Source: Mycolicibacterium baixiangningiae | GTDB taxonomy: Bacteria; Actinomycetota; Actinomycetes; Mycobacteriales; Mycobacteriaceae | Reading direction: 5' to 3' | Assembly (NCBI RefSeq): GCF_016313185.1 | Contig: NZ_CP066218.1 | Location: 4,960,001-5,024,000 of the forward strand | Length of the DNA: 64,000 nucleotides | In this document: in pieces, positions 3,710-21,218 of the stretch | Numbering within the stretch: the first letter of the stretch is position 1 | Layout of the letters: every line of letters starts with the position of its first letter | Translations under genes and position numbers: made by a program | The notes under the pieces: model-generated | The model's input: only the letters and a program-made list of their open reading frames with translations | The model's database searches: none | What the model was told of the DNA's origin: nothing

Positions 3710-4969
3710 TCAGCCCGGCGACAGAAACGCCTGCAGCGCTGCCGAGTACGCCGCGACGTCCGCGGCGCCCATGAGCTCCCGCGCGGAGTGCATGGCCAGC
3801 TGCGCCGCGCCGACGTCGACGGTGGGGATGCCGGTCCTGGCCGAGGTCATCGGGCCGATCGTCGATCCGCACGGTAGGTCGGCGCGGTGTTCGTAGCGCT
3901 GCATCGGCACCCCGGCTTGCGCGCACGCCAGCGCGAAGGCCGCGGCCGTGCGTCCGTCGGTGGCGTAGCGGAGGTTGGGCTGCACCTTGAGCACCGGCCC
4001 CGCGTTGACCTCGATGAGGTGGTTGGGCTCGTGCCGCTCCGGATAGTTGGGGTGGGTCGCATGCGCCATGTCGCCGGAGGCGACCATCGACCCGGACATC
4101 CGCCGCAGCAGGTCTTCGCGATGTCCGCCGGCCGCCAACGTGATTCGCTCCAGCACCGTGGGCAGCAGCTCGGACTGGGCGCCGTGATCGGAGGTGGAGC
4201 CGACCTCCTCGTGGTCGAAGAGCGCCAGCACCGGCACCACGTCGCGGGGCTGCGCGGCCAACAGTGCCTCCACTCCCGCGTAGCAGGTCGCCTGGTTGTC
4301 CAACCGCGGCGCACTCACCAGCTCCCGGTCGGTGCCGGCCAGTGTCGACGGTGTCAGGTCGTGGGTCATCAAATCCGCGGCGAGCACAGCATCTTCGGCC
4401 ACTCCGGCGCGGTCGGCGACCCAGCCCAGGAAGGATCCGGCCGCACCGCCCACCCCCCACACCGCATTCACGTGACGCTGCGGATCGAGGCTGACCCCCT
4501 TGCGGTCGTCGGAGAGATGAATCGCCAACTGCGGCACCCGCAGAATCGGGTCGTCGATGCGGAGCAGCCGGTGCTCGATCCCGTCGCCGACCCGGATGGA
4601 GAGCCTGCCGCTGATTCCCAGATCCCGATCCAGCCACGAGTTCAGCCACGCGCCGCCGTAGGGCTGCAACGCCACGATGCGCCAACCGGCGACGAAGCGG
4701 TCCGGGTGTTGCTTGACGCGAAGGTTCGGGCTGTCGGTGTGACCGCCCACGATCCGGAACGGTGTGTGCGGGTCGGCACCTGCCCGCCATGCGACCAGCG
4801 AGCCGGCCCGCACGGTGAAGTAGTCGCCCGCCGCGGAAGGCCACGCGTCGCCTTCGGCGAGCTCGGTGAACCCGGCGCCGCGCAAGCGGTCCGCGACGGT
4901 GCTGCACACGTGGAACGGGGACGGCGAGGCGTCGATGAACGCGCACAGGCTCTGGGGGCTGGGTGGCAT
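3710..4969 (-). CDS. pepC: M18 family aspartyl aminopeptidase
   Basis: Cytosolic zinc aminopeptidase of family M18 that removes N-terminal acidic residues from peptides; ortholog by position and sequence of M. tuberculosis Rv0800. The 419-residue protein starts at ATG 4969 with [20 protein letters not shown]. Metal-site motifs are visible in order: [12 protein letters not shown] (His and Asp), [11 protein letters not shown] (catalytic and metal Glu), and [39 protein letters not shown] is the conserved C-terminal block. Length is normal for the family. It is divergent from the decayed DyP gene and first in the leftward unit ending in purL. Confidence 0.95.
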
Positions 4970-5019
4970 CTTCTCATCTTGACGGTCGTTTCGTTGATCT
5001 TGAAGCTAGGGTTCACTTT

Positions 5020-5990
5020 GTGCCCGATCCACTGCCGTAACCGGTACTGGCGCCGCTGACCCCGTCGGCCATCTTTCTGGTGGCCACCATCGACGACGGC
5101 GGCGAATCCACGGTGCGGGAGGCGCTGCCGGGCATCGCGGGTCCGGTGCGGGCGATCGGTTTCCGCGATCCTTCGAAGAATCTGTCGGTCGTCACCTCCA
5201 TCGGGTCCGACGCCTGGGACCGCCTCTTCACCGGACCGCGTCCCGCCGAACTGCACCCGTTCCGGCCCCTCGACGGTCCGCGCCACCGCGCACCGTCCAC
5301 GCCGGGCGACCTGCTCTTCCACATCCGGGCCGAATCCATGGACATCTGCTTCGAACTGGCGATGAAGCTGACCCGGTCGATGGCCGGGGCGATCACACTC
5401 GTCGACGAGGTGCACGGTTTCAAGTTCTTCGGCAACCGCGACCTGCTGGGTTTCGTCGACGGCACCGAGAACCCGGACGGTCAGCTGGCGCGCAGCGCCA
5501 CCCAGAGCGGTAACGAGGACCCCGCATTCGCCGGCGGCTGCTACGTGCACGTCCAGCGGTACGTGCACGACATGTCGGGGTGGAACTCGCTGTCGGTCGA
5601 GGAGCAGGAGCGCGTGATCGGACGCATTAAACTCGACGACATCGAACTGGGCGATGACGTCAAACCGGCCGATTCGCACCTGGCGCTCAACGTGATCGAG
5701 GATAGCGACGGCAACGAGCTGAAGATTTTCCGTCACAACATGCCGTTCGGTGAAGTGGGCAAGGGTGAGTTCGGCACGTACTACATCGGCTACGCGCGCA
5801 CACCGACCGTCACCGAGCGCATGCTGACCAACATGTTCATCGGCCATCCGCCGGGCACCACCGACCGCATCCTCGACTTCCCCACGGCCGTCACCGGATC
5901 GCTTTTCTTCACCCCGACCGTCGAGTTCCTGAACACCCCGCCCCGCTGCCGGAACCGGTGGCTGCGCCGACACCACCGGCGCCGGAATCG
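5020..5990 (+). pseudogene. DyP-type heme peroxidase, decayed: nonsense codon 7, 3' frameshift, cargo tail lost
   Basis: Homolog of the M. tuberculosis DyP (Rv0799c), a heme peroxidase normally packed inside an encapsulin shell. The natural reading frame appears to begin at GTG 5020, but codon 7 (5038-5040) is TAA where the family has Gln (LP-Q-P-VLAPLTP). Translation could restart at GTG 5080 (VATIDDGGE), losing about 20 residues. The core is intact: GFVDGTENP (GxxDG motif) and KIFRHNMPFG (proximal His). Near 5941-5945 one C is missing from a C-rich run, so FLNTPP continues out of frame instead of into PLPEPVAAP. The restored frame reaches a GSL tripeptide and then runs into encapsulin sequence, so the encapsulin-targeting tail is gone. 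A truncated enzyme could still be made. Confidence 0.88.
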
Positions 5991-6715
5991 CACGGCTCGC
6001 TCGCCACATCGCCGGAGGGCGGGTCATCGACGTCAGCGCCCCCGGCGGCCCTGTCACCGCGGCGATTTCGACCGGTCACCTCCGCGACGTGACGCCCCCC
6101 AGTGACGGGGTGGTCGTCACGCTGCGCGAGAGCAAGCCCACGGTGCGGTTGCGGGTGCCGTTTACCGTGTCCCGCGCCGCGGCCGACGACGTCGAGCGGG
6201 GTGCGCAGGACTCCGACTGGATCCGGTCAAGGATGTGGCGAAGTAGCTGGCATTCGTGGAAGACCGCGCGATCTTCGACGGCTGCAAAGCGGCGTCGATC
6301 AACGGCATAAGGACGTACAGCAGCAATCCGACGCTGACGCTGCCCGACGACGCTCGCGGGATCCCCGACGTGATCGCCCAAGCCCTGTCGGCGCTGCGCC
6401 TCGCCGGTGCCGACGGCCCGTACTCGGTCCTGCTGTCCGCTGAGGCGTACACCAAACGCGAGCGAGACCACCGAACACGGCTATCCGATCCTCGAGCAAC
6501 TGAACCGAATAGTCGACGGCGACATCATCTGGGCGCGGGCGGTCGACGGCGCGTTCGTATTTTCAACGCGCGGCGGCGATTTCGACTTGCAGCTCGGCAC
6601 GGACGTGTCCATCGGCTACCTGTCCCACGATGCGGGGACGGCGCAGCTCTACCGCGAGGAGACGCTGACGTTCGTGTGCTACACCGCCGAGGCATCCGTC
6701 GCGCTGACGGCCTGA
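5991..6715 (+). pseudogene. Encapsulin (Cfp29-like shell protein), decayed remnant
   Basis: Remnant of the 29-kDa nanocompartment shell protein (Rv0798c family). Homology starts abruptly at LARHIAGGRVIDVSAPGG, about 25-28 residues into the normal protein, with no start codon. Three frame segments can be read: GGPVTAAISTGHLRDV to AQDSDW (about 5993-6220), then DVAK-stop-LAFVEDRAIF to LLSAEAYTK (about 6221-6456, with TAG at 6244-6246 in place of Lys), then ETTEHGYPILEQLN to CYTAEASVALTA (about 6465-6715). At least two frameshifts, one nonsense codon and the missing 5' end make a functional shell protein impossible from this copy. Confidence 0.9.
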
Positions 6716-6794: not shown

Positions 6795-8135
6795 TCAGGG
6801 CGCAACCAGCGAGAAGAGCCTGTCATTGGTGCGCTGGACCAACGTGGTGTTCACCTTCCACACCTCTTTGGCTTCATTCGGCGCGGAGCCCGGGATCGAC
6901 CACAGGACTTCACAAGTCGCCAGGTCCACGCCCTGGGCGGGTGAGCGGTCGCCGAGCGCGACAGCCACTTCGCCGTCGGACGCGAGGTAGTACGCGCCGA
7001 GGCCCTCACCTTCACACGTCTTTCCGGCGTCGCCGGTGTCGAGATCGAATTGCTGCCAGACCCGGTTCTCCGGGTCGGCAGCCAGATAGAACCAGGATCC
7101 GATCAGGCGGGCGCTCGTGGCCGGCTTCGACGGCGGCAGTTCGAGCAGTCGACGGCCATCAAGAGTGATGACTACACGACTTCTCTCGGCGGCGATCATC
7201 GGAATGTCGACGGACCCGCTGTCGAGCTTTCCGTGCACTGACGGCTCCGCGAGCTTACTGCCCGTGTCGTCGAAGAATGCCACTTGGTCCTTGGTGAAGT
7301 CGTCCGCTGGGACGAATTCGTATCCGAAGCCGCCGGGGTAGACGACAGCGCGCCCCAACTGAACACCATGCGACACCGCTGGATCGACGACCTGTCCGTC
7401 GACGACCGAGAACACGACATCGGCGACCTTGCCACTGCCCTGTACGGCGAGCGTCGAGGGAGCAGTGTCCCGTCCCGGACGGGTGAACTGGGTGGGCAGT
7501 ATGCCGTCGCCGGGCACGAACCAGGTCACCTCGGCGCGTGCCCCCACCCCGTGCACACCCTCACCGGTGACGGCCGCTACCGCGTAGTCACCGACCTGCT
7601 CGAGACGCGGGTGACCCTGCGTCATCGCCACGCGTAGATCGGTCGGCCCATCGTAGGTCAGCTTGCCCGCCGACGTGTCGACAACCCATGCAGTCGACGG
7701 CGCGCTGGGATCAGGCCCTTGCCGGACGCAGAGCACCCTGGGTGGACCGTTGACGTAGCAGTTGAAATCTGTTGCGTCACCGGCTGATCCGAGTTGTAAC
7801 GGACCGAACGATCGTTCTCCGCTGGTGACGTCGATACCGAGCAGCCACCAATCCTCGTCGGTGATACCGAGGAAGATGCCGCGGTCACCGATGTTCCCCA
7901 CCGGACGGACGACAGTGCCAGCCGGGAGCCCGAGATTGTCGACAGTGACCGTCCATCCTGGCACCGGTTCCTGGCGCATCGATGCGGAGAGCAGAACCTG
8001 CTGTGGCAGCTTCGGTAGGGACGGTGCCTGCGGAGCACCTTCTGTGGTGCCGGCACAGCCGACGAGCGCAAGCAAGATGACCCCGAGAATCGACCATGCC
8101 TTGAGCCACAACGGGCGGTCACCCTTCGTCGTCAT
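6795..8135 (-). CDS. Putative exported lipoprotein, 446 aa, beta-rich
   Basis: The N-terminus has a charged segment, a hydrophobic core (ILGVILLALVG) and a lipobox LVGC with Cys27, so it is predicted to be lipidated on the outer face of the cytoplasmic membrane. The rest is about 410 residues of mixed beta-type sequence with scattered W and G, such as DWWLLGIDVTSGERSF and WQQFDLDTGDAGKTC. This resembles a beta-propeller or PQQ-repeat fold, but I recognise no family. It is last in a four-gene leftward run with an EspC-like protein. Its start ATG overlaps the preceding stop by one base (TGATG), implying translational coupling. It could be an accessory or immunity partner of the secreted proteins; that is inference. 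Confidence 0.8.
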   Translation of the reverse strand: MTTKGDRPLWLKAWSILGVILLALVGCAGTTEGAPQAPSLPKLPQQVLLSASMRQEPVPGWTVTVDNLGLPAGTVVRPVGNIGDRGIFLGITDEDWWLLGIDVTSGERSFGPLQLGSAGDATDFNCYVNGPPRVLCVRQGPDPSAPSTAWVVDTSAGKLTYDGPTDLRVAMTQGHPRLEQVGDYAVAAVTGEGVHGVGARAEVTWFVPGDGILPTQFTRPGRDTAPSTLAVQGSGKVADVVFSVVDGQVVDPAVSHGVQLGRAVVYPGGFGYEFVPADDFTKDQVAFFDDTGSKLAEPSVHGKLDSGSVDIPMIAAERSRVVITLDGRRLLELPPSKPATSARLIGSWFYLAADPENRVWQQFDLDTGDAGKTCEGEGLGAYYLASDGEVAVALGDRSPAQGVDLATCEVLWSIPGSAPNEAKEVWKVNTTLVQRTNDRLFSLVAP

Positions 8136-8869
8136 CAGGCACCCCGCGCCTGAGAGCGGAGCCGTGCCGCTGCGCTGCCGTCGGTCAATTCACTGCGATG
8201 CTCGGGATGCTGCCAGTAGAAACGCAAGAACTCCCTCAGGTCACCTCCCCCGGGCGTGTACCAGTCCGTCGGCAACTCCCGCATGCGACCGTCATCTCCG
8301 ACGATGTATGTGGTTCCGGTTGGCCGGTCCTCCTTCTTCGCCCTGTCGGCGATGTCCGCGATCTCCTCCCACGGTCGCTTCACGGAGGTCATCGTGTTCC
8401 CTGTCTCGACGCCGTCAACGGTGAGCCGTAGGTAGCTGGTTCCACGCCGCCAGATGATCTGCCTCAAGCTGAGAACGCCGACGAATAGACCTGCAGCGCA
8501 TATGAAGACGAAGTAGCGCTGATTTCCGCTCGGCACATCGACGTCGAGCATGGCAAGCGGGGCGAAGACCGCATAGACGGCCATGGCGACGTATGCCCCA
8601 ACGGTCGACGCCATTAGCGAACCGTCCACTTTTTTGTCCGGGCGCACCATGACGGCTCCGTCATCGTAGGTCACGCGAGGTGCCACCTTTCGCGACGCGA
8701 CGCTCAACAACATGGCAACCAGTCCGAGCGTGAAGACGGCGAACCCCAGGGCCACCACGGCGGAAAGGTATTCGCCTCGCATCACGAAGCGAAGAGTCCA
8801 GGTAAGGCAGAAGATCCCGAAAGGTGCGAAGACAATGCAGAGGAAGGCGACAGCGATCGGCGATTTCAT
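8135..8869 (-). CDS. Uncharacterised membrane protein with four hydrophobic segments, 244 aa
   Basis: Starts at ATG 8869 (MKSPIAVAFLCIVFAPFG), overlapping the stop of the upstream gene as ATGA. Two hydrophobic hairpins are visible, at about residues 1-60 and 95-150, separated by a basic stretch (ASRKVAPRVTYDDGAVMVRPDKK). The cytosolic C-terminal 100 residues, containing YLRLTVDGVETGNTM and PWEEIADIAD, look like a PH-like domain of the kind found in bacterial membrane proteins. Function is unknown. Its place between a WXG-type protein and a lipoprotein suggests a role tied to that secreted pair. Confidence 0.78.
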   Translation of the reverse strand: MKSPIAVAFLCIVFAPFGIFCLTWTLRFVMRGEYLSAVVALGFAVFTLGLVAMLLSVASRKVAPRVTYDDGAVMVRPDKKVDGSLMASTVGAYVAMAVYAVFAPLAMLDVDVPSGNQRYFVFICAAGLFVGVLSLRQIIWRRGTSYLRLTVDGVETGNTMTSVKRPWEEIADIADRAKKEDRPTGTTYIVGDDGRMRELPTDWYTPGGGDLREFLRFYWQHPEHRSELTDGSAAARLRSQARGA

Positions 8870-10206
8870 GGTCCACACACCACGTTGCCGATCAATTTCC
8901 CGACATAGCCGAACGCGAAGCCGCCGGCGACGTTGGCGCCCATCGCCGCGAAGGGACCAACGCCCGGAATGGCTCCGACGGCGACGGAGGTCGCGATGCC
9001 GCCGGCGAAGCCGACACCACCCGACCACGTGGCGACACACTGCTCGTACACCGTATTGGCCGTATAGACGCCGAGGACGGCTTGAGCAATGCCCATCGCC
9101 GGACCACCCCACTTGGCGCCGGCCTTGAGTCCGTCGAGAACCGGGGCACTCAGCCCCTGAATGCCCTTACCCGCCTGCACCTCCAGTCCAGACAGCGCAC
9201 CGCCGGCCAACGTAGGGATGGGATCTTGAAAGAACGAATCCGGCAGGGCGGAGTGCTTTCCGTCAGGGGTGGTGCAACCGCCGGACTGCGTGCCATCCGG
9301 ATTCTGTGAGATGTCGATCTTCGTCCCACCGGCGTACCACACCTCGGTGAGCTTGCCACCATCCTCCCGGGGCGTGGTCATGGTCTCTGAGACGAAGTTC
9401 CCGTTCTTGTCGGTGTGCACCACCTTGAGAGTCCCTGCGGCATACATCTGTTGACTGGGCAATCCCTGATCGATGTACTCGGTCGCGACCTGTGTACTGC
9501 CGTCGAGCATTCTGTAGGTCGTGACCAGGTTGCCGTCTCGGTCGGTCGACTCGCTGACGTCGCGCACCGTGGTCGCCAGGTCCTGGTCGCGCGCCATCTC
9601 CTGGAACTGCTTTCCGTCCGGCGTTGAGGGATCGGGAACGTCATCCGGTGGTGGGGCGGGCACCGGGCCGGGCGGCCCGTATTCGAGATTCTCGAAGCTC
9701 AGGCCCTCGCCCCTTGCCACGATGAGTTGCTGCGCAGTTCGGTCGTCGCTTTCGCCGACCGCGTTCAGCATTCCATTCACTTCGGCTTGTGCTGCCTCGG
9801 CCAGCTTCTGGAGCTCTGCCGCCTGCTCCGCGGACATCTCCGCAGGGTCGATCATCACGACCCACTGATCCGTGACGTTCAGCGGGCCTGCGTCGATCTC
9901 GTCTGCCTTGGCGAGCAGGGTGGTCCGGGCGCTGCCGATCGACGCACTTCCGGTACGCAAAGCTCGAGCGAATGCATCGGTGTAATTCTTGAGACTCGAC
10001 GACCGCTCGGTCGCCCGGGTGAACATCCGGGTGGCAGCGTCGTGGCCCTGCCCGGCCCAGCCCCGCGACTCGGGCATCCGGTCGATGCGGTCGTCGAGGT
10101 TGACGACTGAGTTGTAGATCGATTCGCCGGAAGCCGCGATCGTCGATGCGGCCGCCGCCAGCGACTCGGGGCTCCAGCTCTTGAGCCGTGAACGTGAGGG
10201 CAGCAC
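8866..10206 (-). CDS. WXG100-like type VII secretion substrate with glycine-rich hydrophobic C-terminus, 446 aa
   Basis: Start chosen at GTG 10206, three bases after the EspC-like stop; frame further upstream lies inside that gene. Residues about 10-130 are helical with a WAG turn (W50-A-G52, in ESRGWAGQGHDAA), the helix-turn-helix layout of WXG100/LXG proteins. A Pro-rich linker (GPPGPVPAPPPDDVPDP, about 180-200) leads to a polar middle region. The last 110 residues are dominated by Gly and Ala with long hydrophobic stretches (GGIATSVAVGAIPGVGPF, GGFAFGYVGKLIG), like membrane-inserting glycine-zipper domains. No signal peptide is present. Export by an ESX system with its small partner is inferred; toxin, pore or adhesin activity is possible but unproven. 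Confidence 0.72.
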   Translation of the reverse strand: MLPSRSRLKSWSPESLAAAASTIAASGESIYNSVVNLDDRIDRMPESRGWAGQGHDAATRMFTRATERSSSLKNYTDAFARALRTGSASIGSARTTLLAKADEIDAGPLNVTDQWVVMIDPAEMSAEQAAELQKLAEAAQAEVNGMLNAVGESDDRTAQQLIVARGEGLSFENLEYGPPGPVPAPPPDDVPDPSTPDGKQFQEMARDQDLATTVRDVSESTDRDGNLVTTYRMLDGSTQVATEYIDQGLPSQQMYAAGTLKVVHTDKNGNFVSETMTTPREDGGKLTEVWYAGGTKIDISQNPDGTQSGGCTTPDGKHSALPDSFFQDPIPTLAGGALSGLEVQAGKGIQGLSAPVLDGLKAGAKWGGPAMGIAQAVLGVYTANTVYEQCVATWSGGVGFAGGIATSVAVGAIPGVGPFAAMGANVAGGFAFGYVGKLIGNVVCGP

Positions 10207-10208
10207 TG

Positions 10209-10493
10209 TCAGAACAGCTGGTCGAAGGTGCCTGCCAAGCCGGCGTCCTCGACTTCGTAGCAATCGCCTGCCCCGCGGACCGCGACGCCCATCGCCTGGA
10301 CGTCCGTGACGATGTCGCTTGCCGCCAACCCGAGGTGGTGGCCGACCTCCCGGGCCGCCCACTGCGTAGACGAGCCGGGCAGCCCGTCCGCCGCAGAAGG
10401 CGCGAGATTGCCGACATTCAACCCGCTGATCGCGGTCGCGGCCGCATCTACCTGCGCAGCAAAGGCGCGCAGCACCTCGGGATCGACCAACAC
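10209..10493 (-). CDS. EspC-like type VII secretion-associated protein (DUF2580 family), 94 aa
   Basis: Small helical-hairpin protein of the EspC/DUF2580 type, which is exported by ESX systems as a dimer with a larger partner. It begins MLVDPEVLRAFAAQVDAAA, the family's characteristic first helix. Near the C-terminus, Y79-x-x-x-D83 (in CYEVEDAG) fits the YxxxD/E general export signal of type VII substrates. The GTG start at 10493 is supported by TAGGTT six bases upstream. It directly precedes the WXG-like gene by three bases, the usual arrangement of paired substrates. No ESX core gene is in the window, so the machinery must be encoded elsewhere. Confidence 0.82.
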   Translation of the reverse strand: MLVDPEVLRAFAAQVDAAATAISGLNVGNLAPSAADGLPGSSTQWAAREVGHHLGLAASDIVTDVQAMGVAVRGAGDCYEVEDAGLAGTFDQLF

Positions 10494-10499
10494 CGCTCG

Positions 10500-10505
10500 A
10501 ACCTA
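10500..10505 (-). promoter_or_regulatory. Predicted -10 box (TAGGTT) of the EspC-like operon
   Basis: On the minus strand TAGGTT, then CGAGCG, then the GTG start. The 6-nt spacing predicts a leaderless transcript and a promoter separate from purQ, which ends 32 bp further upstream. Confidence 0.5.
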
Positions 10506-10536
10506 ACACCGGTCCGAACCGGCTCAGCGCACGAAT

Positions 10537-11211
10537 TCAGACCGTGAGCACCGCGTCGAGCGCCGACAGGAACAGGCCGAGCCCGTCGTCGGACGGTCCG
10601 GTGAGCGCCTCTGTCGCATGTTCGGGGTGCGGCATCAGGCCGACGACGCGGCCGTTGGCCGAACTGATCCCCGCGATGTCGCGCATGGACCCGTTGAGGT
10701 TCTCGCGGTAGCGGAAGACCACCCGGCCCTCACCCTCGAGTTCGTCGAGCACCTTCTCGCTCGCGACGTAGCGGCCCTCCCCCGACTTCAGCGGGATGAG
10801 GAGGTCGGCGCCGTTCTCGTAGCGCGTGGTCCACGCCGAGGTGTTCGAGGCGACCTGCAGCCACGTGTCGCGGCAGATGAAGTGCAGCCCGATGTTTCGG
10901 GTCAGCGCCCCCGGCAGCAGGCCGGATTCGCACAGCACCTGGAACCCGTTGCAGATGCCGAGCACCGGCATGCCCTGCTCGGCCGAGCGGATGACCTCAC
11001 CCATGACGGGCGCGAACTTCGCAATGGCGCCCGCGCGCAGGTAGTCACCGTAGGAGAAACCGCCCGGCACCACGACGGCGTCCACACCCTTGAGGTCGGC
11101 GTCGGCATGCCACAGGCTGACCGGCTCGGCACCGGCGAGCCGCACTGCGCGTGCGGCGTCGATGTCATCGAGTGTTCCCGGGAACGTGATCACTCCCACC
11201 CGTGCGCTCAT
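10537..11211 (-). CDS. purQ: PurQ, FGAM synthase glutaminase subunit
   Basis: Class I glutamine amidotransferase that supplies ammonia to PurL for FGAM formation in purine biosynthesis. The 224-residue protein shows the start [22 protein letters not shown], the oxyanion and elbow region [15 protein letters not shown], the nucleophile Cys in [12 protein letters not shown], and the catalytic His-Glu pair in [11 protein letters not shown]. Length is normal. Its ATG overlaps the purS stop (ATGA), so the two are translationally coupled, as is usual in actinobacteria. Confidence 0.98.
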
Positions 11212-19407: not shown

Positions 19408-19975
19408 ACCGCAACACGCGCCGCAGCGCCGCGCCGAAGGGGTGCCGCACCGTCACTGAGCCCATGCGGACCCGCCCGCGGACCACGACGTGCAGGCGAG
19501 GCGACGGCGGCATGGCGGCGACGGTCACCGTGACGCTCCCCGCGACGGTCTCCACCTCGGTGGTGGCGGTGGCGTCGTCGGGCAGGATGATCTCGGTCGA
19601 ACTGCAGTAGTCGTCGACGTGAATCTCGACGACCGGGCGTTGCAGGGTGGCCGCCCGGAAATCCAACGTGGTGTCGCACATCCGGGTGTCGACACGGATC
19701 CGCGGAGGTGCCACCCACCGGCCACGACGCGACAGCGACGTCATCCGTCCGCGCAGCACCAGCGGCTCGGGCGCCTTCGGCCCGCCCAGTGGCAGGTCGT
19801 CGAGAACGGCGGCGAGGTCGCCTCGGGTTCGCGCCGCCAAGACGACGTCGATACGTTCGGTGAATTCGTCGAGCGTCAGCATCCCTTCGCCGACGGCATG
19901 TTCCAGCAGCCGCCGCGCCTCGGCTCGCTCCGTGTTCGAGATGCGCAGGTGCGCGTCACCACTCGCTGGGTCCAC
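19406..19975 (-). CDS. DUF1707 domain protein, 189 aa
   Basis: Starts at GTG 19975 (VDPASGDAHLRISNTERAE). Residues about 8-62 form a canonical DUF1707 domain (RISNTERAEARRLLEHAVGE, then LTLDEFTERIDVVLAARTRGDL). The C-terminal half (RIRVDTRMCDTTLDFRAAT, VEIHVDDYCSSTEIILPDD) is a beta-rich LiaF/DUF2154-like domain, linked in other bacteria to sensing of envelope stress. No membrane segment is visible between them. It is downstream of cyp126 on the same strand, after a short gap. Confidence 0.86.
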   Translation of the reverse strand: MDPASGDAHLRISNTERAEARRLLEHAVGEGMLTLDEFTERIDVVLAARTRGDLAAVLDDLPLGGPKAPEPLVLRGRMTSLSRRGRWVAPPRIRVDTRMCDTTLDFRAATLQRPVVEIHVDDYCSSTEIILPDDATATTEVETVAGSVTVTVAAMPPSPRLHVVVRGRVRMGSVTVRHPFGAALRRVLR

Positions 19976-19994
19976 GCCTTCCGAGGGTAGGCGC

Positions 19995-21218
19995 TCAGGA
20001 CGCCGCGAGCCGCACCACCATGTGCCGGATCCCGGTGTGCCGGTTGCTGCGGGCCCACTCGACCGGTTCGACCAGCTGCACAGTGTCACACCGAGCCAGC
20101 AATTCCTCGAACAGCACCCGCAGCTCGAGCCGCGCGAGGTTGGCACCAAGGCAGTAGTGGACACCCTGCCCGAATCCCAAGTGAGGGTTGGGTTTTCGTG
20201 CGATGTCGAATACGTCCGGATCGGCGAACCCTGCCGCGTCGCGGTTCGCCGAACCCTCCCACACCAACACCTTCTGCCCGGCCAGGACGAGGTGTCCGCC
20301 GAGTTCGGTGTCGCACGTGGCGGTGCGGCGCTTGGACGGCGACGGCGATGTCCACCGCACCATCTCCTCGACAGCGGTGGGCAGCAGCGACGGATCGGCG
20401 CGCAGCGCGTCGAAGGCAGCCGGGTGTTCGACCAGCGCCAGCAGGCCGCCGGCGATCGAATTGCGCGTGGTTTCGGCGCCCGCGCTGAACAGCAGATAGA
20501 AGAACAGGTACAGCTCGGCGTCGGTCAGCCACGATTCGGCGGCCACCACCGACAGCATGTCGTCACCGGGCTCGGCGCGCTTGCGGGCCACCAGTTCCGA
20601 ACCGTAGGCGTACATCCGGGAACCGGCGTCCTCCACCGTCAACCGCTCGATCGCGGCCTTGCGGGATCCGCGGAAGTCGAAGCCCGGTTCGACGGCCTCG
20701 AACAGCCAGTGCCGGTCGGACTCCGGCACGCCCAGCAGAATGCAGATCATCTGCATCGGCAGTTCGGCGGCCACCTGCGGCAGGAAGTCGAAAGCCTCCC
20801 CGTCGGCGACCTCATCGAGCAGCGTTCGGGCGCGCCGGCGCAGATCATCGGTGACGCGGGCGATCATCCGTGGCGACAGACCTGACGTCACCAGCCGGCG
20901 GATCTGCGAATGCCGCGGATCGTCCATCATGTTGAGCACTTGACCGGCGATCGGCAGATCCTGCAGCAACGTGCCGCCGTACGGCCTCTCGCCCCCGGTC
21001 ACCGAGGAGTAGGTGGCCTGATCACGAAGCACCGCAAGGGTTTCGGGGTAGGTGGCGACAGACCAGAAGCCTTCGCCGTCCGGGGTGTGCTCGGTGGCTT
21101 CGTGCCAGTACACGGGCGCGTCGCGGCGGTGGATCGCGAACAGGTCGTGAGGGAAGCCGTCGGCGAAGTTGTCAAGATCGGTGAAGTCGATCTGCGACAG
21201 CTCCGCCGCCCGAGTCAC
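19995..21218 (-). CDS. cyp126: Cytochrome P450, CYP126 family
   Basis: A 407-residue soluble bacterial P450 (class I), ortholog by position beside purB of M. tuberculosis CYP126A1 (Rv0778). The I-helix oxygen motif is [15 protein letters not shown], the K-helix ExxR is in [11 protein letters not shown], and the heme-thiolate Cys is in [15 protein letters not shown]. The physiological substrate is unknown. ATG 21218 overlaps the purB stop (ATGA), so it is probably cotranscribed and coupled with purB, as in other mycobacteria. Confidence 0.94.

What the first reader, a model, noticed from the sequence alone, without database searches (positions are those of the whole stretch)
5020..6715. DyP peroxidase-encapsulin locus destroyed by a deletion that fuses cargo tail to shell gene
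The DyP frame has TAA at codon 7 and a one-base loss near 5941-5945. In the restored frame the DyP tail reads PLPEPVAAPTPPAPES-HGSL and then becomes encapsulin codons. Encapsulin homology begins about 25-28 residues late at LARHIAGG. The join falls in GGCTCGCTCGCC, where a DyP GSL-coding stretch and an encapsulin RLAR-coding stretch would share CGGCTCGC, so a short-homology deletion is likely. It removed exactly the DyP cargo-loading peptide, the intergenic gap and the shell N-terminus. Later changes are TAG 6244-6246 and two frameshifts in encapsulin.
Basis: partly seen in the sequence, partly recalled or inferred. Interest (0 to 1): 0.72.

Follow-up and report, generated by a model that had tools for sequence, protein, structure and literature searches.

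The report
Decayed encapsulin-peroxidase locus in a mycobacterium
This stretch is the wreck of a known bacterial nanocompartment (a peroxidase cargo and its protein shell) that an unnamed mycobacterium stopped maintaining fairly recently, in a group of species of which most sampled close relatives have lost it; it is an ordinary pseudogene, of some use as a natural example of shell loss.

Summary
The lesions are real. DyP has an in-frame stop at codon 7 and a one-base frame change near 5942; 111-130 bp (median 114, 73 loci) are missing between the DyP tail and encapsulin residue 29; encapsulin also has TAG 6244-6246 and frame changes near 6218 and 6457.

Corrections: the proposed shared CGGCTCGC occurs in 0 of 73 intact loci, junction overlap being 0-3 bp; DyP tail and shell lie in different frames, so no fusion protein; the cargo peptide is cut inside, keeping GSL.

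No other encapsulin match was found in the genome (PF04454, PF19307). Of seven sampled genomes with pepC at least 91% alike, six lack both genes here and one, G252, has an intact locus. Genus-wide 368 of 395 genomes hold a PF04454 match; a pepC tree needs 11-14 changes. Substitution counts place the inactivation late on the window's own branch, with more unusual changes in the shell (10/241) than in DyP (3/260; Fisher p 0.047); DyP alone is not distinguishable from a constrained gene. In three other species the shell is broken while DyP is open and tagged, a hint that the shell often goes first.

The parts
3710..4969 (-). pepC-like M18 aminopeptidase, intact neighbour and synteny anchor
   Evidence: NCBIfam NF002759, 566 bits; 80 related loci
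5007..5012 (+). TAGGGT, -10-like element, 7 bases between it and the ancestral DyP start; suggests a leaderless DyP transcript (inferred)
   Evidence: same motif in the corresponding stretch of 71 of 77 relatives; no sigma-70 consensus hit
5020..5079 (+). DyP N-terminus with in-frame stop at codon 7 (5038-5040)
   Evidence: alignment with 7 relatives
5041..5943 (+). DyP core, about 300 codons open; first ATG/GTG/TTG after the stop is GTG 5080
   Evidence: Dyp_perox_C 192.7 bits and Dyp_perox_N 100.9 bits; DyP of PDB 7bok, E 2.4e-161
5941..5946 (+). one-base frame change between DyP core and tail
   Evidence: against 7 of 7 relatives
5946..6002 (+). remnant of the proline-rich DyP tail, ending in HGSL
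5994..6011 (+). deletion junction; 111-130 bp fewer than intact loci
   Evidence: 73 loci; 114 bp against G252
6002..6217 (+). encapsulin piece 1 (from residue 29)
   Evidence: PF04454 53.9 bits, NF041155 62 bits
6211..6255 (+). frame change near 6218 and in-frame stop 6244-6246
6256..6468 (+). encapsulin piece 2, frame change near 6457
   Evidence: PF04454 68.2 bits
6470..6715 (+). encapsulin piece 3 with its stop
   Evidence: PF04454 71.2 bits, NF041155 88.2 bits
6795..10509 (-). three-gene cassette between shell and purQ (lipoprotein-like, membrane protein, WXG100-like; first two named by eye)
   Evidence: present in L008, absent in L010 and G252
10537..11211 (-). purQ, the neighbour that follows pepC in kin that lost the locus (gene name recalled from the mycobacterial gene order)

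Best explanation
The region is a recently inactivated family 1 encapsulin operon (cytosolic DyP peroxidase plus shell protein) in a mycobacterium. Shown: nonsense, frame and deletion lesions rule out both ancestral products; the deletion, about 114 bp long, took the last part of the cargo peptide, the gap and the first 28 shell codons; no other encapsulin of the two families searched was found in the genome. Inferred: the deletion arose by end joining or slippage with little or no homology (0-3 bp); selection on the locus ceased late on the branch leading to this species; constraint on the shell may have ended before that on the peroxidase; six near relatives lost the locus by separate deletions of the whole block between pepC and purQ.
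For: Lesions against 7 relatives and an intact near relative, G252, with DyP 85% alike. Same-place DyP in 77 of 80 pepC loci. The only PF04454 matches in the genome are these pieces; PF19307 finds nothing in the own genome while it rings in 19 of 59 genus genomes. Window-unique changes at codon positions 1+2 that are invariant in relatives: shell 10 of 241 against at most 3 in 75 relatives, DyP 3 of 260 (10 of 242 and 3 of 262 without G252), pepC 0 of 448. Ten of twelve neighbouring frames end like their kin's. Six near kin lack the locus. Junction overlap 0-3 bp, 111-130 bp missing.
Against: No raw reads were seen. The DyP core is open for about 300 codons, keeps the motifs GFVDG, SHLAL and RHNMP (roles recalled), and its 3 unusual changes are within the range of intact relatives (3 of 75 have 3 or more); pairwise dN/dS of the core, 0.143, 0.136 and 0.178 to L008, L010 and G252, is near that of intact pairs (0.115 to 0.171). 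So DyP alone is not shown to be free of constraint.
Confidence: 0.92

Rival explanations
1. Shell lost, peroxidase kept: the 341-codon frame from GTG 5080 makes an unencapsulated, N-terminally shortened DyP with a new arginine-rich tail.
For: Core open and little changed (3 of 260); -10-like TAGGGT kept; in three other species DyP is open while the shell is broken.
Against: The start would drop the first 20 codons, where the family model begins (NCBIfam match starts at model position 26); the promoter looks leaderless for GTG 5020, so 5080 would need re-initiation, and I saw no ribosome site by eye; the new tail resembles none of the 77 DyP tails listed.
Confidence: 0.06
2. Ancestral inactivation: the locus broke in the common ancestor of the window and the six near species without it, which then deleted it, and this genome keeps the fossil.
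For: Six of the seven genomes nearest by pepC lack it; the best trees nest the window among those six, with intact G252 outside.
Against: With dS 0.346 to G202 (0.367), about 45 DyP and 42 shell changes would be expected over the tip alone (my arithmetic); 3 and 10 are seen.
Confidence: 0.03
3. Assembly error in an intact locus.
For: Three of the lesions are single-base frame changes.
Against: Two nonsense codons and about 114 missing bp are not typical base-calling errors; ten of twelve compared frames nearby end like their kin's; unusual shell substitutions exceed those of all 75 relatives.
Confidence: 0.02

Closest known systems
Family 1 DyP encapsulin operon of mycobacteria (M. tuberculosis Cfp29/DyP, M. 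smegmatis DyP-loaded encapsulin)
   Same: Same DyP and shell families, same conserved tail type GSLxIGSLKG in relatives, same place beside pepC in 77 of 80 loci.
   Different: Both genes broken here; cargo peptide cut; first 28 shell codons gone.
Pseudogenes of reduced mycobacterial genomes
   Same: Several lesions in one locus, as in G324 (3.1 Mb), where both genes are degenerate.
   Different: Here a 6.18 Mb genome with mostly intact neighbours; decay is local.
Flp-fusion and cytochrome-fusion encapsulins (passages seen in PMC8346489)
   Same: Cargo-coding DNA lies directly before shell-coding DNA.
   Different: Here the frames do not match, so there is no fusion protein.

Membership tests
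Family 1 encapsulin system with DyP cargo | shell gene of the Linocin_M18 / encap_f1 family | tested here: met
   three pieces each over PF04454's cut-off; NF041155 62, 69.8 and 88.2 bits, each under its whole-protein cut-off of 100
Family 1 encapsulin system with DyP cargo | open, full-length shell reading frame | tested here: not met
   first 28 codons missing, one stop, two frame changes
Family 1 encapsulin system with DyP cargo | DyP cargo gene next to the shell gene | tested here: met
   as a broken gene
Family 1 encapsulin system with DyP cargo | C-terminal cargo-loading peptide on the cargo | tested here: not met
   tail stops being DyP after HGSL and is out of frame with the core
Family 1 encapsulin system with DyP cargo | assembly into a loaded shell | not testable with these tools
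   -
Pseudogene | several inactivating lesions absent from orthologues | tested here: met
Pseudogene | relaxed constraint | tested here: inconclusive
   met for the shell (10 of 241, maximum 3 in 75 relatives), not distinguishable for DyP (3 of 260, maximum 4)
Cargo-shell fusion encapsulin | one frame through cargo and shell | tested here: not met

The most novel reading that the evidence does not exclude
In mycobacteria the shell is the expendable part: encapsulin is lost repeatedly and first, and the DyP goes on for a time as a free enzyme, here perhaps still made from GTG 5080 without its cargo peptide. Three other species with a broken shell, an open DyP and a kept cargo peptide would be earlier steps of the same path.
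Probability: 0.12. Interest if true: 0.5.

Novelty: new member of a known kind. Interest (0 to 1): 0.26.

Why it matters
The peroxidase nanocompartment is reported to help M. tuberculosis withstand oxidative stress (title and passages of PMC8635971), yet 27 of 395 genus genomes show no PF04454 match, among them most sampled near kin of this species. Such natural shell losses let one ask what the shell is for.

Tried and rejected
Rejected: shared 8-bp homology at the junction; protein fusion; a rescue by another encapsulin or by a cytosolic DyP (both other DyPs carry twin-arginine-type N-termini by eye).

Mended on re-checking: I first took the kin only from genomes already known to lack or break the shell (26 searched for pepC) and would have written that all nearest kin lost the locus. 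A pepC search of all 395 genus genomes brought up G252, 94% alike, which has an intact locus.

Unresolved: one or several losses among the six near kin. The tree in which the six form one clade has p-AU 0.048 with 4839 columns, 0.18 with 4815 codons and 0.048 with 4514 codons and G252 added: borderline. In G166 the gap holds an open frame of 456 codons that looks like a transporter and in G002 what looks like a piece of it, which suggests shared history there (named by eye).

FolB tails vary too much in both groups to say anything. A census of broken neighbour genes from stop-to-stop frames of kin (end) was too crude, since upstream extensions gave breaks of doubtful meaning, and was replaced. 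The first tree script stopped on a missing taxon after printing part of its result; 33 loci without purQ were left out of it. The promoter scan found nothing.

Dropped rows: BfrB was compared in 19 of the 30 genomes searched plus the window's; 11 had no close BfrB or a degenerate one. Of 27 genomes without an encapsulin match 20 are named; seven more handles appear only and were not looked into. 18 loci of shell-less or weak genomes were read. The pepC tree has 103 rows, 26 counted as lost or broken (two of them, L047 and L076, judged by this locus only); its intact rows were chosen by likeness to the window and G252 is not in it, so 14 changes (11 without three cases G363, G398, G097) is a rough figure. 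Junction borders were found in 73 of 79 loci tried.

Full report
What is there. The window lies in a 6.18 Mb one-contig genome of a mycobacterium; by the neighbouring aminopeptidase pepC the nearest named genome is Mycobacterium sp. IS-1496, 92%. Between pepC and purQ stands a locus that in relatives encodes a DyP peroxidase and a family 1 encapsulin. Of 80 pepC loci fetched, 77 carry DyP, each in one open frame; 74 carry encapsulin in one open frame and the other 3 of the 77 are cut by contig ends; 3 loci (L007, L047, L076) have neither.

Lesions. In the window the DyP frame from GTG 5020 meets a stop at codon 7. Its core then stays open for about 300 codons (Pfam Dyp_perox_C 192.7 bits; best solved relative 7bok, E 2.4e-161). 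Near 5942 the frame changes by one base against 7 of 7 aligned relatives. After a short proline-rich tail ending HGSL, DNA homologous to encapsulin residue 29 follows at once; further lesions are a frame change near 6218, TAG 6244-6246 and a frame change near 6457. Three encapsulin pieces are recognised separately.

The deletion. Measured in 73 loci in which both borders could be found (of 79 tried), the intact interval is longer by 111 to 130 bp, median 114; against G252 it is 114. The piece lost runs from inside the conserved DyP tail (GSLxIGSLKG in most relatives), after GSL, through the gap to shell codon 28. Overlap between the two borders is 0 bp in 54, 1 in 3, 2 in 12 and 3 in 4 of 73 loci, and CGGCTCGC is absent at the shell border in 73 of 73. 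So the proposed 8-bp repeat is not supported; end joining or slippage with little homology is the better guess (mycobacterial Ku/LigD end joining is recalled, not tested). In its own frame the tail reads ...ESHGSLATSPEG, while the shell reads ...ARLARHIAGG in another frame: DNA is joined, protein is not.

Is it noise? Twelve frames from 10.5 to 27.8 kb were compared with seven kin. Ten end within 16 codons of the stops of those kin that have them; purQ aligned over its whole length but its kin loci end there; one (19623-20882) matched poorly and may be no gene. The lesions cluster in one locus of 1.7 kb, and one of them is a deletion of over 100 bp.

Kin. A pepC search of 395 genus genomes gives seven at 91-94% identity besides the window's own, and then a step down to 87%. 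Six of the seven (G166, G202, G304, G002, G115, G261; G115 has the contig length of IS-1496) show no trace of DyP or shell between pepC and purQ; about 1540, 2080, 160, 440, 70 and 10 bp lie between the aligned flanks there. The seventh, G252 (94%), is intact: DyP open to a GSLAIGSLKG-type end and 85% alike, shell pieces 79-89% alike, purQ directly after. In a tree of 4514 codons G252 stands outside the group of the window and the six (support 98/93); within that group the window is nested with low support, and one clade of losers is borderline rejected (p-AU 0.048; 0.048; 0.18). Synonymous distance window-G252 is 0.45 for DyP and 0.457 for flanking genes, as expected if the locus was inherited, not imported.

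When. At first and second codon positions that are invariant among relatives, the window alone differs at 10 of 241 shell sites and 3 of 260 DyP sites; among 75 relatives the maxima are 3 and 4, the means 0.48 and 0.60; G252 has 1 and 2 (the same picture without G252). pepC shows 0 of 448 such sites in the window. Shell and DyP differ with Fisher p 0.047, which is weak. Synonymous distance of flanking genes to G202 is 0.346 (0.367); half of that predicts about 42 shell and 45 DyP changes had both genes been free over the whole terminal branch (my arithmetic). Hence inactivation is recent, very roughly the last fifth of the branch for the shell and a twentieth for DyP; mutation bias is ignored. 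The losses of the six kin are then separate from the window's. Against this reading, DyP on its own cannot be told from a constrained gene: 3 of 75 relatives show as many changes, and dN/dS of the core is 0.143, 0.136 and 0.178 to L008, L010 and G252.

Genus. 368 of 395 genomes have a Linocin_M18 match, 367 over the cut-off. On a pepC tree of 103 rows, 26 lost or broken, at least 14 changes are needed, 11 without three cases. G212 keeps only the start of DyP and G104 a shorter stretch; G324, a 3.1 Mb genome, has both genes degenerate. In G363, G097 and G398 the shell is broken while DyP is open and ends in a cargo peptide; assembly errors cannot be excluded there, above all in the first two, where the shell is only split between frames.

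Compensation. Own genome: no PF19307 match, with the model shown to ring in 19 of 59 genus genomes. Two further DyPs have Tat-like N-termini by eye. So I found no other shell and no other cytosolic DyP.

A side test. BfrB and FolB were proposed as cargo on the basis of a shared end (PMC8635971, passages seen; the 2014 paper itself is not held). The BfrB end AP-x-x-AGG-x-L is present in 10 of 10 shell-less genomes, the window's and three of its near kin included, and in 9 of 10 with a shell, the tenth ending at AGG. It is therefore unlikely to be kept for encapsulation alone. FolB ends are variable in both groups.

Literature. Searches for encapsulin with pseudogene (4 papers; from the listing none appears to be about mycobacteria) and for encapsulin with gene loss and mycobacteri (0 papers) found no report of encapsulin loss in mycobacteria in the open library. 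[quoted passage not shown] leprae.

Verdict. Interest is modest.

Noticed in passing
L107 and loci L141-L159 (BfrB): The C-terminal AP..AGG.L end of BfrB is as conserved in shell-less as in shell-bearing mycobacteria, so it is unlikely to be kept only as an encapsulin cargo peptide.
   Followed up: partly
L239, about 5262-5447 in window orientation (Mycolicibacterium sp. S2-37): A second, diverged 3' fragment of encapsulin lies beyond the three-gene cassette, in addition to the usual gene; the cassette may have arrived by recombination at this spot.
   Followed up: partly
window 6795-10509: Three-gene cassette (lipoprotein-like, membrane protein, WXG100-like protein with 24.2 bits, under Pfam's cut-off 27.3) between shell and purQ; some homology in 10 of 80 pepC loci, absent in G252. 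Possibly a secreted protein with accessory genes.
   Followed up: partly
L182, L186, L185 (G363, G097, G398): Encapsulin broken, DyP open with cargo peptide kept.
   Followed up: partly
G011 C1:1267061-1268843: A second DyP-encapsulin pair, 71-72% alike in DNA, in a genome that also has a closer one.
   Followed up: no
L173 (G166) between pepC and purQ: An open frame of 456 codons that looks like a transporter sits where DyP-encapsulin would be; G002 seems to hold a remnant of it (named by eye).
   Followed up: partly
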